DNA of 64,000 nt from Zobellia nedashkovskayae (lineage in GTDB: Bacteria > Bacteroidota > Bacteroidia > Flavobacteriales > Flavobacteriaceae): the NCBI RefSeq assembly GCF_015330125.1, contig NZ_JADDXR010000002.1, positions 682,001 through 746,000 of the forward strand. The letters run 5' to 3'. Position 1 is the stretch's first letter. Every line of letters starts with the position of its first letter. Both the position numbers and the translations under genes were made by a program. Of this stretch, positions 51,926 to 63,260 are shown one piece after another. Under the pieces are notes generated by a model. The model searched no databases. It saw only the letters and a program-made list of their open reading frames with translations, and was not told the origin of the DNA.

Positions 51926-52483
51926 ATGAACGAAGATATACAGTTTATACTTGACTCCTCTAAGGAAAGCATGGATGCTGCAATGAGGCATTTAGAAAAG
52001 GAATTTGTTAAAATACGTGCTGGAAAAGCAAGCCCCGCAATGCTTTCTTCCGTTATGGTAGAATATTATGGATCACAGACGCCCTTATCTCAGGTAGCGA
52101 ATATAAACACCCCTGATGGTCGTACTATTTCCGTACAACCTTGGGAGAAGAACATGTTACATGAGATTGAAAAGGCAATCATGAATTCTAACTTAGGTTT
52201 CAACCCTATGAACAATGGTGATTTCGTAATCATCAATGTACCACCACTGACCGAGGAAAGAAGAATTCAATTAACAAAACAAGCTAAAGCCGAAGCTGAA
52301 GATGCTAAAGTAGGTATCCGTAGTGCTCGCCAAGATGCCAATAAAGAAATTCGCGACCTTGAAGACGTTTCAGAAGATTTACAAAAAAATGCTGAAGTCG
52401 ATATTCAAGCACTTACAGATAAATATATCAAGAAAATAGACGCATTCTTGGTTGTCAAAGAAGCAGAGATAATGAAAATCTAG
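51926..52483 (+). CDS. frr: Ribosome recycling factor
   Basis: RRF, with EF-G, splits post-termination ribosomes. The 185-residue protein has exactly the E. coli length. Markers are FVKIRAGKASPAMLSSVMVE, YYGSQTPLSQVANINTPD, RTISVQPWEKNMLHEIEKAI and IINVPPLTEERRIQLTKQA. It is cotranscribed with pyrH and ended by the terminator at 52505. Confidence 0.98.
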   Translation: MNEDIQFILDSSKESMDAAMRHLEKEFVKIRAGKASPAMLSSVMVEYYGSQTPLSQVANINTPDGRTISVQPWEKNMLHEIEKAIMNSNLGFNPMNNGDFVIINVPPLTEERRIQLTKQAKAEAEDAKVGIRSARQDANKEIRDLEDVSEDLQKNAEVDIQALTDKYIKKIDAFLVVKEAEIMKI

Positions 52484-52504
52484 TTTTAGATTTTCTCTTA
52501 AAAT

Positions 52505-52535
52505 AAAAAAGCAGCCCACATGGCTGCTTTTTTTT
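52505..52535 (+). terminator. Intrinsic terminator after pyrH-frr
   Basis: AAAAGCAGCC and GGCTGCTTTT pair around loop CACAT, followed by a run of T. Confidence 0.92.
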
Positions 52536-52593
52536 ATTCAGCACCAATAAGTTAATTAAATATCACATTTTAGGAACACACCTAATCATTATA

Positions 52594-52601
52594 TACCTTT
52601 G
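52594..52601 (+). promoter_or_regulatory. Promoter -7 element of the RND transporter gene
   Basis: TACCTTTG matches TAnnTTTG and lies 19 nt before the ATG. The sequence about 19 nt upstream reads TTTAGG, one base away from a TTG -33 element. Confidence 0.45.
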
Positions 52602-52620
52602 CGCTCGGAAAAATTGAACG

Positions 52621-55017
52621 ATGGCAGCCAAACATAAACAAGGTTTTTGGGAGAAAACAGCAAGCATAATTCTCCGTAACCGCATATTGATACTTATTTT
52701 AATTGCTGCATTCACCGTTTTCTTGGGTATGCAATGGAAAAATATGCGCTTCAGCAATACCCAGGCAAATCTATTACCAGACGACCACCCTGTTAACTTG
52801 GAATATCGGGATTTCTTAGATCAGTTTGGCGAAGAAGGTAATGCCATTGTATTTGCAATTCATGATTCTACACTCTTCACCCCTACCAATATTAACAGAT
52901 GGAACAAATTCAGTAAGCAACTTGCCGCTTTTCCTGAAGTAGATTTTGTTCTCTCTTTAGATAATCTTCAAGAACTTAAAAAAGATAACGTAAATCAGAA
53001 GTTCATTCTTGAACCTCTCATTAGTTCTGAAATAAAGACCAAGAAAGAAATAGATAGCATAAAAAATCATCTATTTAAAGACCTACCTTTTTACGACAAT
53101 CTCCTGTTCAATAAAGAAACGGGAACGGTTAGGACCATAGCAAATATGGATGGAGACATCATCAACACCAGTGTCCGCAAAGATTTCATTCTAGAAGACC
53201 TTAACCATCTTATTGACAATTTTGAGGCAGAAACAGGGTTAGATGTACGGGTATCCGGTATGCCGTACATCCGAACCATGAACTCCCAAAACATCATTGA
53301 TGAAATAGGAAAGTTCATTTTGGCAGCTCTTGGAGTCACCTCTCTAATTTTCTTTTTCTTCTTTAGGAGTTTCCGAGCCACCCTTATATCCATGTGTGTT
53401 GTAATCATTGGAGTAATGTGGGCTTTTGGTATTCTAGGTCTCTTACAGTATGAGATAACAGTACTTACTGCTTTAATCCCTCCTCTCATTATTGTTATAG
53501 GTATCCCCAACTGTATCTTTCTGATTAATAAATACCAGCAAGAAGTTAAAAAACATGGGAATCAAGCTCTTTCTCTACAACGTGTAATATCTAAAATAGG
53601 TAACGCTACGCTGATGACAAACATGACTACAGCGTCTGGTTTTGCCACTTTTATAATCACGGATAGCAAGCTACTTAAGGAATTTGGTATCGTAGCCTCC
53701 ATTAACATTATTGGTATTTTCATACTATCACTTTTGATAATACCTATTATCTACAGCTTTTTATCCCTTCCAAAAACAAGACATTTAAAGCATCTTAACA
53801 AACGCTGGATAGATGCCTTTGTAAATAAGATGGAACATATAGTTAGACACCGCAGGATTGCTGTCTACATCGTTTCTTTGATTCTTCTTATCACCAGTAT
53901 TATTGGTATTTACCAAATAGAAATTTCCGGAAGCCCTATAGAAGATATGCCCAAGAACGCCCAGTTCTTTAAAGACATTCGCTTTTTCGAAAAAGAATTT
54001 GATGGTATTATGCCTATTGAAATAGTCGTGGATACTAAAAAACCTAAAGGTGTTTTGAAACCTGCCAATTTAAAACGCTTAGACCAATTAAGCGAGGTCG
54101 TTACGGATATACCCGAGCTTTCAAAACCTATTTCGGTCGTAAACTTAGTTAAGTATTCAAAGCAGGCCTTTTATAACGGCATACCCAAATATTATCAATT
54201 ACCCACTGCCCAAGAAAACAACTTTATAATGAAAGTTGCCCAAAATTCTGATGGAAACGGCAACCTGCTTAAAAACTTTGTAGACAGTACCGGTCAGACT
54301 GCCCGAATCACCACTTTTATGAAGGACGTGAAAACGGACCGTATGGAGCAAATTGAGGAAAGGCTTAATGAAAATATAAACAAAATCTTCCCTCCAGACC
54401 GCTACAATGTATATATGACGGGAAGTGCGCTTTTATTTCTGAAAGGCACAAAATATCTGGTAAAAAATCTAATCCTCTCATTGGCTTTTGCAATCTTCTT
54501 GATTGCGCTATTTATGGCCTATCTTTTTAGGTCGTTTAGAATGATTATAATTTCATTGATTCCAAACTTGCTTCCTCTGGTCATAACTGCAGGTATTATG
54601 GGCTTTGTAGGCGTACCTATTAAACCTTCTACTATTTTGGTATTTAGTATTGCTTTTGGAATTTCGGTAGATGATACTATTCACTTTTTGGCAAAATACA
54701 GGCAAGAACTTATTGCAAACAAATGGCAAATTAAGAAATCTGTTTACGCTTCGCTTCGTGAAACAGGGGTAAGTATGTTCTATACTTCAATTGTTCTTTT
54801 CTTTGGTTTCTCCGTTTTTATCATTTCAAACTTTGGAGGTACTGTAGCACTTGGCGCACTAGTTTCGGCCACATTAATGTTTGCTATGTTGGCTAATCTT
54901 ATTCTTTTACCATCGTTATTACTATCCTTGGAAAGGAATATTGCAAGTAAAAAAATATTAAAAAAACCACAAATAGACATTCTTCCGCAAGGCGAAGACG
55001 AAGTAGGAGAAAATTGA
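52621..55017 (+). CDS. RND superfamily transporter (MMPL/patched-like)
   Basis: A 798-residue inner-membrane exporter built from two similar halves: a membrane helix, a periplasmic domain and a five- to six-helix bundle, repeated. The halves are seen at residues about 20-40 / 225-385 and about 415-435 / 625-775. The bundles carry the sterol-sensing-domain-like pattern (GIPNCIFLINKYQ in half one, AFGISVDDTIHFLAKYRQEL in half two, with the Asp pair typical of proton-coupled RND pumps). It lacks the long docking domains of tripartite efflux pumps, and no membrane-fusion or TolC gene is nearby. Candidate cargoes are lipids or hopanoid-like molecules, by analogy with MMPL/HpnN proteins; this is inference. 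Confidence 0.85.
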   Translation: MAAKHKQGFWEKTASIILRNRILILILIAAFTVFLGMQWKNMRFSNTQANLLPDDHPVNLEYRDFLDQFGEEGNAIVFAIHDSTLFTPTNINRWNKFSKQLAAFPEVDFVLSLDNLQELKKDNVNQKFILEPLISSEIKTKKEIDSIKNHLFKDLPFYDNLLFNKETGTVRTIANMDGDIINTSVRKDFILEDLNHLIDNFEAETGLDVRVSGMPYIRTMNSQNIIDEIGKFILAALGVTSLIFFFFFRSFRATLISMCVVIIGVMWAFGILGLLQYEITVLTALIPPLIIVIGIPNCIFLINKYQQEVKKHGNQALSLQRVISKIGNATLMTNMTTASGFATFIITDSKLLKEFGIVASINIIGIFILSLLIIPIIYSFLSLPKTRHLKHLNKRWIDAFVNKMEHIVRHRRIAVYIVSLILLITSIIGIYQIEISGSPIEDMPKNAQFFKDIRFFEKEFDGIMPIEIVVDTKKPKGVLKPANLKRLDQLSEVVTDIPELSKPISVVNLVKYSKQAFYNGIPKYYQLPTAQENNFIMKVAQNSDGNGNLLKNFVDSTGQTARITTFMKDVKTDRMEQIEERLNENINKIFPPDRYNVYMTGSALLFLKGTKYLVKNLILSLAFAIFLIALFMAYLFRSFRMIIISLIPNLLPLVITAGIMGFVGVPIKPSTILVFSIAFGISVDDTIHFLAKYRQELIANKWQIKKSVYASLRETGVSMFYTSIVLFFGFSVFIISNFGGTVALGALVSATLMFAMLANLILLPSLLLSLERNIASKKILKKPQIDILPQGEDEVGEN

Positions 55018-61038: not shown

Positions 61039-61785
61039 TTATTTTTTGTGATCCACCAACATATCTATCAAAACGATAGAAGAGTCTTCCATATCATTAA
61101 CAATGCTATCAATTTTAGCAATGATGTAATTATAAAAGATTTGAAGGATAATAGCAGTAATAAGACCAAATACAGTTGTTAATAATGCAACCTGGATATC
61201 ACCTGCAATAAGAGATGCACTAAGGTTACCAACAGCACTAATCTTTTGGAAGGCCTGAATCATACCAATTACCGTACCCATGAAACCAAGCATAGGCGCA
61301 ACAGCAATAAATAAGCCTAACCAAGAAACGTTCTTCTCTAATTGACCCATTTGAACACCACCATAAGCTACAACAGCTTTCTCAGCAGATTCGATACTTT
61401 CTCCTGCTCTATCCAAACCTTGATAGTATATAGAAGCAACAGGACCTTTTGTATTTCTACAAACTTCTTTAGCAGCTTCAACACCACCCGAGGCCAATGC
61501 ATCTTCTACTTGTTGTTTTAGCTTACCAGTATTAGTGGTTGCCATGTTTAAATAAATAATTCTTTCAATTGCAACTGCCAAACCAAGAATCAAACACAAA
61601 AGAACAATACCCATAAAGCCGGCACCACCTTGTATAAACATTTCTTTCAACATCTGTGTAAAACCTACTTCGGCTTCAGCAGGTGCATCTTGCATCATTG
61701 TTGCTGTAGTTGCCATTGCGTTAACAGTATTTGTACTCATTACAAACAACCCGCCCACGGCTAGGATAGAGGATAATTTTTTCAT
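61039..61785 (-). CDS. exbB: ExbB / MotA-TolQ family proton channel
   Basis: ExbB is the proton-channel scaffold of the TonB energising complex. The 248-residue protein has an N-terminal signal-like helix (SSILAVGGLFVMSTNTVNA), then the three helices of the family: FMGIVLLCLILGLAVAIERI, LFIAVAPMLGFMGTVIGMI and VALLTTVFGLITAIILQIFY, with the Thr/Gly-rich helix faces that line the pore. It starts an operon exbB-hyp-exbD-exbD. A structured, GC-rich leader lies upstream (61835-61954). Confidence 0.95.
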   Translation of the reverse strand: MKKLSSILAVGGLFVMSTNTVNAMATTATMMQDAPAEAEVGFTQMLKEMFIQGGAGFMGIVLLCLILGLAVAIERIIYLNMATTNTGKLKQQVEDALASGGVEAAKEVCRNTKGPVASIYYQGLDRAGESIESAEKAVVAYGGVQMGQLEKNVSWLGLFIAVAPMLGFMGTVIGMIQAFQKISAVGNLSASLIAGDIQVALLTTVFGLITAIILQIFYNYIIAKIDSIVNDMEDSSIVLIDMLVDHKK

Positions 61786-61834
61786 TTGTTCAAACTTAAA
61801 TTAGTTATTTAATAGGGTTAAAGATAAAAAAAAA

Positions 61835-61954
61835 TCACAATAAAAAAAGTAAAACTTCGTTGCATCGGAGAAGTGGGGCCCAAATAGGGGTCATGACATC
61901 GAAACGGGCTGTTACACCAGTGCCTCTGCCTGACATAATCAAGCACAGACTTCT
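61835..61954 (-). other. GC-rich structured block in the exbB leader: candidate attenuator, small RNA or short ORF
   Basis: 61861-61940 is about 54% G+C within very AT-rich flanks. On the minus-strand RNA, AGAAGU (61954-61949) can pair with ACUUCU (61874-61869), closing a domain of about 86 nt. Inside is a 7-bp stem UGCUUGA/UCAGGCA (61945-61939 with 61933-61927), whose G-U pair works only on this strand. ACUUC (61874-61870) can instead pair with GAAGU (61858-61854), followed by a U-rich tract, like a terminator. The two pairings exclude each other. The same strand also has a 33-codon ORF (61936-61835). The block ends about 50 nt before exbB and lies about 75 nt after tRNA-Ser. Confidence 0.45.
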
Positions 61955-62029
61955 ATTTTGCATATAAAAACTAAACTTACAAATATTTCCAGTCTAAACT
62001 AATTAATACTGAAAAATCTTTTTGTTCTG

Positions 62030-62117
62030 CAGAGAGGAAGGGATTCGAACCCTCGATACACTTTTGGTGTATACACACTTTCCAGGCGTGCGCCTTCGAC
62101 CACTCGGCCACCTCTCT
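62030..62117 (-). tRNA. tRNA-Ser (anticodon GGA)
   Basis: A minus-strand class II tRNA with a long variable arm. Acceptor stem AGAGAGG/CCTCTCT with discriminator G; anticodon stem CACGC/GTGTG holding loop CTGGAAA (anticodon GGA); variable arm ATACAC/GTGTAT; T arm AGGG-TTCGAAT-CCCT. The 3' CCA is not encoded. No exact TAnnTTTG promoter was found upstream. Confidence 0.95.
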
Positions 62118-62225
62118 AAATTTCACTTATCCTTTAGTTTAAACAATAAACTAACTAAACAAGATCACCTTTTTTACGGGGTGGCCAAATAACAAAAAAA
62201 ATGTTAGTTGATGAAATTAAAACTG

Positions 62226-63260
62226 CTAATTTTCTTGAATTTCACCACGTAGTGAAGTCTCAAATATACTTTTAAACAATTTGACCGAAACATTATTACC
62301 CAGAAGATACATTAACTTAGCAACAGCAGCCTCAGTCGTAATGTCTTTACCATTAATTACTTGCAATTCTTCTAACTGCTTACTGGTTTCATAGCGACCC
62401 ATAGAAACGCTGCCTCCTGAACATTGCGTAACATTAATAATATGAATGTTATTTTCTTTTGCCTTTCTGAGAATATTGATCATCCAAGGCTCATTTGGAG
62501 CATTTCCTGCACCATATGTTTCCAAAATAAGTCCTTTTAAACCCGGAATACTGACTACACCTTGCAAAACAGCCGGACCAATACCGGGAAACAACTTCAG
62601 GATAGCCACATTGGTATCCATATGTTTATGTGCTTTGAACTTTTTACGCTTCACATAAGGTAACAAATATTCTTCACTAACCTTTAAGTATACCCCAGAC
62701 TCTATTAATTCAGGATAATTAAGTGAGGCAAATGCCTGAAAGTGCTCCGCATTAATTTTTGTAGTACGATTGGCACGATACAATTTATACTCAAAATAGA
62801 GGCCTACCTCTTGCACCACAGGTTTTTTATTATGCTGCAAAGCAGCAATCTGAATTGAGGTAATAAGATTTTCCTTTGCATCTGTTCGCAAATCCCCAAT
62901 AGGCAATTGAGAACCGGTAAAAATAACGGGTTTCCCTAAATTTTCTAGCATAAAACTTAAAGCAGATGCCGTATAACTCATTGTATCACTGCCATGTAAT
63001 ACAACAAAACCATCATGAGTATCATAATTTTCTTCAATAATAGTTGCTATTTCAGCCCAATGCGCAGGATTCATATTAGACGAATCTATTGGCACATCAA
63101 AAGAAACCGAATTAATATGACAATCCAACAGCTTAAGCTCCGGTATATTTTTAAGCAGTTTATCAAAATTAAAAGCCTTTAACGCGCCAGATTCATAATC
63201 TTTGACCATACCTATAGTACCGCCGGTATATATTAAAAGGATGCTACTTTTATCTGTCAA
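62226..63260 (-). CDS. ansA: Type I (cytoplasmic) L-asparaginase
   Basis: The enzyme hydrolyses asparagine to aspartate and ammonia. The 344-residue protein has both catalytic threonine motifs, LLIYTGGTIGM (residues 8-18) and VLHGSDTMSYTASAL (about 88-102), followed by FTGSQLPIGDLRTDAKEN. There is no signal peptide, and the length fits the type I class. The start is taken as TTG at 63260: no ATG is near and the first motif follows directly. It lies 51 nt after tatD on the same strand. Confidence 0.94.
   Translation of the reverse strand: MTDKSSILLIYTGGTIGMVKDYESGALKAFNFDKLLKNIPELKLLDCHINSVSFDVPIDSSNMNPAHWAEIATIIEENYDTHDGFVVLHGSDTMSYTASALSFMLENLGKPVIFTGSQLPIGDLRTDAKENLITSIQIAALQHNKKPVVQEVGLYFEYKLYRANRTTKINAEHFQAFASLNYPELIESGVYLKVSEEYLLPYVKRKKFKAHKHMDTNVAILKLFPGIGPAVLQGVVSIPGLKGLILETYGAGNAPNEPWMINILRKAKENNIHIINVTQCSGGSVSMGRYETSKQLEELQVINGKDITTEAAVAKLMYLLGNNVSVKLFKSIFETSLRGEIQEN

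What the first reader, a model, noticed from the sequence alone, without database searches (positions are those of the whole stretch)
61835..61954. Candidate new regulatory RNA upstream of the exbB-exbD (TonB energiser) operon
Seen: an isolated block of about 54% G+C in AT-rich sequence; a closing stem AGAAGU/ACUUCU around about 74 nt; an internal 7-bp stem with a G-U pair valid only on the minus strand; and an alternative pairing of the same ACUUC with a downstream GAAGU followed by U-rich sequence. Mutually exclusive pairings next to an operon start are the architecture of attenuators and riboswitches. Inference: the block senses something linked to TonB-dependent uptake (metal, haem, cobalamin or another TonB substrate). 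I do not recognise a known riboswitch class. The stems are short, and it could instead be a small RNA transcribed separately.
Basis: partly seen in the sequence, partly recalled or inferred. Interest (0 to 1): 0.72.

Follow-up and report, generated by a model that had tools for sequence, protein, structure and literature searches.

The report
New rod-shaped RNA before exbB
Between a serine tRNA gene and the TonB-energiser operon, six related genera of Flavobacteriaceae carry an apparently uncatalogued structured RNA of roughly 126 letters whose ends and length are nearly fixed while its middle changes almost completely, which looks like a separate small RNA rather than a riboswitch.

Summary
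The minus strand at about 61842-61967 carries a structured RNA. It is present in 9 of 9 held genomes of the window's genus and 3 of 3 of Euzebyella's. A covariance model from those 12 found four further genera, each hit lying between tRNA-Ser(GGA) and exbB. A re-trained model also found G411, a held-out species of one of these. In all, 6 of 237 sampled genera matched, and carriers form one clade on an exbB tree (support 0.997). The stem joining the RNA ends shows strong covariation: 9 pairs with changes on both sides, against 3.7 in shuffles, 0 of 500. Length is nearly constant (136-140 nt from the -7-like box to the U-run) and the ends are conserved, but the interior is almost unrelated between genera. 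That is the reverse of a riboswitch. The proposed attenuator pairing has probability at most 0.03. Rfam gave no credible match. Best reading: a lineage-specific small RNA gene with its own -7-like box and U-run. Expression, targets and function are untested.

The parts
61842..61967 (-). Candidate small RNA, about 126 nt, from the predicted start 61967 (plus or minus a few bases) to the U-run
   Evidence: Present in 9 congeners and 3 Euzebyella genomes; covariance-model hits in 4 further genera, all between tRNA-Ser and exbB; folds from +1
61972..61979 (-). TAAGTTTA, candidate sigma-A -7 box (TAnnTTTG; 7 of 8 here, 8 of 8 in G376 and G425)
   Evidence: TAAGTTT[A/G] in 9 of the 10 representatives listed (G318 differs); consensus from PMC9723704 (passages)
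61949..61954 (-). 5' arm of closing helix P0 (AGAAGU)
   Evidence: Helix 3: 96.7% of cells paired in 15 distinct rows, all 6 pairs with a change on both sides
61869..61874 (-). 3' arm of closing helix P0 (ACUUCU)
   Evidence: (65 of 66 cells paired over 11 rows; 8 of 5000 shuffles reach it)
61959..61962 (-). 5' arm of outer helix P00 (UGCA)
   Evidence: 81.7% of cells paired in 15 rows; register differs in G376 and G425
61861..61864 (-). 3' arm of outer helix P00 (UGCA)
61938..61944 (-). 5' arm of hairpin P1 (GCUUGAU), window genus
   Evidence: 98.4% of cells paired, only one-sided changes; 55 of 56 pairs on the minus strand
61928..61934 (-). 3' arm of hairpin P1 (GUCAGGC), window genus
61916..61921 (-). 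5' arm of hairpin P2, window genus
   Evidence: 79.6% of cells paired, 2 pairs with double change
61904..61909 (-). 3' arm of hairpin P2, window genus
61880..61886 (-). UAUUUGG, invariant in the 9 congeners, unexplained
   Evidence: absent from the 3 Euzebyella copies
61842..61858 (-). GAAGUUUUACUUUUUUU: weak hairpin and U-run, candidate terminator; partly present also in relatives without the RNA
61986..62015 (-). Hairpin H0 just after tRNA-Ser (UUUUCAGU/ACUGGAAA); tRNA terminator, processing signal or operator
   Evidence: 8 pairs, invariant in 9 congeners; consensus z -1.97, 8 of 200; a predicted hairpin of other sequence at the same place in the 8 non-congener representatives (no shuffled control there)
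62030..62117 (-). tRNA-Ser(GGA)
   Evidence: Rfam RF00005, 56 bits; ARAGORN
61039..61785 (-). exbB (Pfam MotA_ExbB, 98.6 bits)
61819..61826 (-). TATCTTTA, candidate exbB-proximal -7 box, independent of the RNA
   Evidence: present in 57 of 57 short-gap and 19 of 19 long-gap loci

Best explanation
The block is a gene for a small noncoding RNA of about 126 nt on the minus strand. Shown: conservation, strand, fixed position, near-constant length, and covarying base pairing of the two ends. Inferred: it arose once, in the ancestor of six Flavobacteriaceae genera, in the gap between tRNA-Ser(GGA) and exbB; transcription starts about five bases after the -7-like box TAAGTTT[A/G] and stops at the U-run that precedes the exbB-proximal promoter region. 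The 5' and 3' ends pair into a closing stem, which in Euzebyella and G018 continues as a long imperfect rod. In the window's genus the interior may instead form two hairpins and expose an invariant UAUUUGG. Because position, length and the closing stem are kept while the interior is replaced between genera, the conserved part is probably a scaffold (terminator, stability, protein binding) and the interior a fast-changing part. The likeliest function is a trans-acting regulatory RNA or a protein-binding rod RNA, not a ligand sensor for exbB.
For: Present in 9 of 9 congeners and in all 3 Euzebyella genomes held; a DNA search matched 2 of these 3, and the third was read at its exbB. Model R2, built only from these 12, hit four further genera at E 1.9e-9 to 4.0e-4; all four lie between tRNA-Ser(GGA) and exbB. 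Model R3 also found G411, not in its training set, at the same place. Closing stem over 15 distinct rows: 95.0% of cells paired, 9 pairs with a change on both sides (shuffles 3.7), covariation score 0.302 (shuffles 0.173), each 0 of 500. On the MAFFT alignment A6, not fitted to the structure: 96.3% paired and covariation score both 0 of 500. Lengths from box to U-run: 138 in 11 of 12, 137-140 in the other five. Euzebyella copies fold at z -4.3, -3.9 and -3.2, G018 at z -5.0. The 11 carriers form one clade among 32 exbB sequences, support 0.997. No frame is open in all 8 distinct congener rows, though one minus frame is open in 5 of 8.
Against: No expression data were available, so transcript, start and end are inferred. 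No clear -33 TTG was seen by eye, and G318 lacks a good -7 box. Single-sequence folding is not better than shuffles for the window's copy (z -0.97 and -0.76) or G318 (z -0.4), and weak for G219 (z -1.5). Within the genus alone covariation is weak (scores reached by 40, 18 and 33 of 500 shuffles), and RNAalifold's covariation term was not better than in shuffles. In A6 the number of pairs with double change (3) was reached by 36 of 500 shuffles. The four distant rows of A7 were aligned by the model, which leans towards the structure. Two-hairpin and rod folds of the window's interior compete. Some other regions scored too in the control run: two of four other intergenic regions, and the tRNA-block spacer (minus z -2.9). 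No target was sought genome-wide.
Confidence: 0.62

Rival explanations
1. It is the 3' trailer of the tRNA-Ser precursor: tRNA-Ser, hairpin H0 and the rod are made as one transcript that ends at the U-run, and the rod is a by-product or a processed tRNA-linked RNA.
For: Directly downstream of tRNA-Ser on the same strand in every copy looked at; H0 bridges the two; in 57 of 76 relatives the tRNA lies only 73-86 nt from exbB, 29 of these 57 with the AAGTTTTA tract; the 5' strand of a further helix lies in the -7-like box itself.
Against: A near-consensus -7 box sits at a fixed distance from the rod. A mere trailer would not need near-constant length and covarying ends.
Confidence: 0.17
2. It is a cis-acting leader of exbB (riboswitch, attenuator or protein-controlled leader) read from the upstream promoter.
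For: Immediately upstream of exbB in every copy looked at; ACUUC can pair either with GGAAGU or with GAAGU in all 8 distinct congener rows.
Against: Interior unrelated between genera. Alternative pairing probability 0.00-0.03. GAAGTTTTA occurs in 5 of 57 loci without room for the RNA. exbB-proximal TATCTTTA is in all 76 loci. UAUUUGG does not pair with the exbB start (the duplex energies printed there had no control and were not used). 57 of 76 relatives have exbB without room for the block.
Confidence: 0.12
3. It is a second, diverged 6S-like RNA that imitates a promoter for RNA polymerase.
For: Rod of about 125 nt with fast sequence change; shape rather than sequence is kept.
Against: 6S-Flavo is present elsewhere in this genome (95.4 bits). 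No 6S match here or in the relatives scanned. No constant large central bubble was seen by eye.
Confidence: 0.05
4. No RNA function: a spacer with conserved DNA signals at both ends and neutral filler.
For: Flanks are more conserved than the interior; 18 of 76 other named relatives carry inserts in the same gap without a significant match to the models.
Against: Covariation of the ends at 0 of 500, strand-specific G-U conservation, consensus-fold z -4.6, near-constant length.
Confidence: 0.04

Closest known systems
6S-Flavo RNA (Rfam RF01685)
   Same: Flavobacterial, about 110 nt, rod-like; single match in this genome
   Different: This genome has a true 6S-Flavo at another place; no model match here or in the relatives scanned
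Rfp18 and other independent transcribed regions of Flavobacterium psychrophilum (PMC9723704; abstract and passages seen)
   Same: Structured intergenic small RNA of the same bacterial family; Rfp18 is conserved in its genus and its deletion lowers two metalloprotease mRNAs
   Different: Rfp18's sequence and position were not available to compare; homology not tested
Flavo-1 motif (Rfam; Weinberg 2010, as cited in PMC9723704)
   Same: Structured motif widespread in Flavobacteriaceae, function unclear
   Different: No Rfam match to it at E up to 5 in the 531-bp stretch
Riboswitches and transcription attenuators (as a kind)
   Same: Upstream of an operon, closing stem, alternative pairing drawable
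   Different: Ends conserved and core variable, the reverse of an aptamer; alternative pairing negligible

Membership tests
Riboswitch / attenuator of exbB | Aptamer core conserved among homologues | tested here: not met
   Interior almost unrelated between genera, ends conserved; R1, which includes the genus interior, hit only the window's genus in 199 genomes
Riboswitch / attenuator of exbB | Mutually exclusive pairing that switches a terminator or start site | tested here: not met
   ACUUC/GAAGU 0.00-0.03 in 9 genomes; UAUUUGG-start pairing 0.000. Equilibrium folding only; ligand- or co-transcriptional switching not tested
Riboswitch / attenuator of exbB | Lies in the mRNA leader of the regulated gene | not testable with these tools
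   No RNA-seq; exbB-proximal TATCTTTA in 76 of 76 loci suggests a separate start
Bacterial small RNA gene (kind) | Intergenic, noncoding, conserved structure | tested here: met
Bacterial small RNA gene (kind) | Own promoter and terminator | tested here: inconclusive
   TAAGTTT[A/G] box in 9 of 10 representatives and a U-run; no -33 seen; no mapping
Bacterial small RNA gene (kind) | Discrete transcript acting on targets | not testable with these tools
6S RNA / 6S-Flavo | Match to the family model | tested here: not met
   true copy elsewhere
Bacterial SRP RNA | Match to the family model | tested here: not met
   True copy elsewhere, 48.5 bits; none here
Rfp18 | Sequence homology | not tested
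   Sequence not given in the passages seen

The most novel reading that the evidence does not exclude
A family of RNAs in which selection fixes length, closing stem and position but lets the roughly 80-nt interior be replaced almost wholesale between sister genera. It would be a shape-selected rod RNA, or a standard scaffold carrying a fast-evolving specificity region, such as one chasing changing targets or mobile elements.
Probability: 0.22. Interest if true: 0.75.

Novelty: new member of a known kind. Interest (0 to 1): 0.5.

Why it matters
To my knowledge few small RNAs of Flavobacteriaceae outside Flavobacterium are characterised. This one comes with covariance models, 16 aligned copies in six genera, a single inferred origin and exact coordinates, so it can be tested directly. 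A fixed scaffold with a rapidly replaced interior would be an unusual way for an RNA to evolve. It also shows that a riboswitch-like look next to a TonB operon can mislead.

Tried and rejected
Riboswitch or attenuator: rejected on interior variability, negligible alternative pairing and a partner that occurs without the RNA. Known RNAs: Rfam at the gathering threshold gave only tRNA here; at E up to 5, besides tRNA-overlapping matches, it gave only weak ones far below their gathering scores. 6S-Flavo and SRP lie elsewhere. Small protein: no frame open in all 8 distinct congener rows, one minus frame open in 5 of 8. Plus-strand RNA: disfavoured. Two weak hits of the first genome search were treated as chance: L010 lies inside an ORF and L011 just before one, neither with a tRNA-Ser. 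The 18 named long-gap loci other than Euzebyella gave no significant model match; the best was Kriegella aquimaris at E 0.11 (R2) and 0.083 (R3), and a short-gap Maribacter locus scored nearly the same (0.17 and 0.13), so I take these as noise. A pairing of UAUUUGG with the exbB start looked possible by eye but has probability 0.000; the uncontrolled duplex energies in the same call (-23.9 to -29.7 kcal/mol) were not interpreted. An arm-permutation test on Euzebyella marina alone was only suggestive (1384 of 20000). My first register for the outermost helix was wrong by one column and was corrected. Literature: five searches for an RNA at this place or in this genus showed none in their listings; one search listed 20 of 19,630 papers and one search listed 6 of 75; only PMC9723704 was opened (passages). 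Most subscription papers are not held.

Full report
WHERE IT LIES. On the minus strand the order is asparaginase (62226-63260), tRNA-Ser(GGA) (62030-62117), the block, exbB (61039-61785) and, further on, two ExbD-type genes. The genus is not named by the tools. I think it is Zobellia: one congener (G005) is a single contig of 5,521,712 bases, which I recall as the size of Z. galactanivorans, and no Zobellia appears among named exbB relatives although near records may be left out. A paper search for that number found nothing, so this is inference.

THE OBSERVATION. The G+C of 61864-61954 is 0.516, against 0.16 and 0.21 in the flanks and 0.377 for the window. Single-sequence folding gives no clear support (z about -1). 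Comparison does. The block is found in 9 of 9 held genomes of the genus. The intergenic region 61786-62226, which includes the tRNA, is 85-97% identical in 8 congeners. Of the four other intergenic regions measured, one (52484-52621) is also conserved (76-91%); the other three are 50-58% in the two most divergent congeners. RNAalifold with column shuffles gives z -4.61 for the minus strand (1 of 400) and z -4.95 for the inner part (0 of 400), against -2.5 and -2.1 for the plus strand. Controls: six coding windows on both strands reach at most z -1.9. Two of the four other intergenic regions score strongly on both strands; 52484-52621 contains a terminator-like hairpin, the other, 64558-64673, was not inspected. 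The other two score nothing. tRNA-Ser scores -2.0 and -2.4, the tRNA-block spacer -1.5 and -2.9; the exbB leader has only 2 distinct rows and scores nothing.

STRAND. The changes in the 7-bp stem are mainly G-C to G-U and U-A to U-G. They keep 55 of 56 pairs as minus-strand RNA but only 38 of 56 as plus-strand RNA (8 distinct rows).

AN INSERTION IN A CONSERVED GAP. One search kept the best 80 of 568 named exbB relatives. The tRNA-Ser was found in the stretch held for 76 of them (four dropped: L030, L034, L078, L099). In 57 of the 76 the gap from tRNA-Ser to exbB is only 73-86 nt; in 19 it is 156-570 nt. The exbB-proximal TATCTTTA is in all 76. Only one of the 19, Euzebyella marina, looked homologous. 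Its block has the same ends and a quite different interior, and folds as a long rod, z -4.0.

THE FAMILY. The genus of E. marina has three genomes in the collection; the DNA search matched two, and reading the region upstream of exbB shows the RNA in all three. The window genus alone gave model R1, which hit nothing outside the genus in 199 genomes (2 of 199, both congeners) and missed E. marina. Model R2, from the 12 copies with only the closing stem as structure, searched 299 genomes of the family: 8 have a match, in 6 of 236 genera. Four are new genera (G257, G018, G219, G318; E 1.9e-9 to 4.0e-4). All four lie between tRNA-Ser(GGA) and exbB, which chance matches would not do. Model R3 with these added gave 11 of 397 genomes, still 6 of 237 genera; G411, not used in training, lies at the same place. 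These large searches use strict filters that lose weak matches, so absence elsewhere is not proven. On an exbB tree of 32 chosen sequences (11 carriers, 21 others) the carriers are one clade, support 0.997, so one origin is likely.

ANATOMY. From the box TAAGTTT[A/G] to the end of the U-run the length is 138 nt in 11 of 12 copies and 136 in E. marina; the other five have 137-140. The closing stem was tested at three levels. Within the genus, whole structure: 96.2% of cells paired (11 of 500 shuffles), covariation score only slightly above shuffles (33 of 500). With Euzebyella, on a MAFFT alignment: 96.3% paired, 0 of 500; three pairs with double change (36 of 500); covariation score 0 of 500. 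With all six genera: 95.0% paired, nine pairs with double change against 3.7, all five measures 0 of 500; here the four distant rows were aligned by the model, a bias towards the structure, and G411 was not included. In P0 all six pairs change on both sides somewhere. Folded from the predicted start, all ten representatives listed pair bases near their 5' end with bases just before or within the GAAG that precedes the U-tract.

THE INTERIOR. In the window's genus two hairpins (P1, P2) and an invariant UAUUUGG can be drawn, and a rod competes with them. In Euzebyella it is a long rod (z -4.3, -3.9, -3.2); G018 also (z -5.0), G257 z -2.1, G219 z -1.5, G318 z -0.4. Between genera I saw no shared interior sequence by eye.

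MECHANISM. Shown: a structured, strand-specific RNA element with fixed ends, near-constant length and fixed place. Inferred: transcription from TAAGTTT[A/G] (TAnnTTTG is the sigma-A -7 consensus at -12 to -5 in F. psychrophilum, PMC9723704, passages seen), giving a start near 61967, and termination at the U-run. No -33 element was recognised by eye, and G318's box is poor, so processing from the tRNA-Ser transcript remains the main rival. A helix using the bases of the box itself also exists on paper and would favour that rival. A predicted hairpin H0 lies between tRNA and box in all ten representatives, with differing sequence; it may end or process the tRNA transcript or be an operator.

WHY NOT A RIBOSWITCH. 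The interior is variable and the ends constant. ACUUC/GAAGU has probability 0.00-0.03 in 9 genomes. GAAGTTTTA is also found in 5 of 57 loci without room for the RNA. UAUUUGG does not pair with the exbB start. These are equilibrium folds; switching by a ligand was not tested.

NOVELTY. At gathering thresholds Rfam matched only tRNAs in the window and in seven relatives' loci. In the E-value scans the matches overlapping the RNA were rliE (E 1.2, plus strand) and SCARNA7 (E 2.5), far below their gathering scores, and snoR111 (E 4.6) in E. marina. Paper searches showed no description of an RNA at this place in their listings, two of them capped. The kind, a small structured RNA gene, is known; the family appears new.

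Noticed in passing
window 52484-52621: Intergenic region between two plus-strand genes (51926-52483 and 52621-55017) is conserved in congeners (76-91%) and scores on both strands; it holds a strong GCAGCC/GGCTGC hairpin between A- and T-runs, a likely bidirectional terminator.
   Followed up: partly
L035 (MAG SZUA-72), between tRNA-Ser and exbB: A second copy of the tRNA 3' end (AATCCCTTCCTCTCTGC) lies about 140 nt downstream of the tRNA, as if a mobile element had integrated at tRNA-Ser and left (by eye).
   Followed up: no
18 named loci, among them L026, L027, L031, L033, L036, L038, L044, L054: The same tRNA-Ser to exbB gap carries inserts without a significant match to the RNA models (gap 156-570 nt); some are strongly folded (L026 z -6.2, L027 z -7.1, L035 z -5.0), and in L033 and L054 the insert contains repeats by eye.
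   Followed up: partly
window 61786-61860: The exbB leader is almost perfectly identical in all 9 congeners (2 distinct rows for 61786-61856); reason unknown.
   Followed up: no
window 61880-61886: UAUUUGG is invariant in the genus inside an otherwise variable stretch and remains unexplained.
   Followed up: partly
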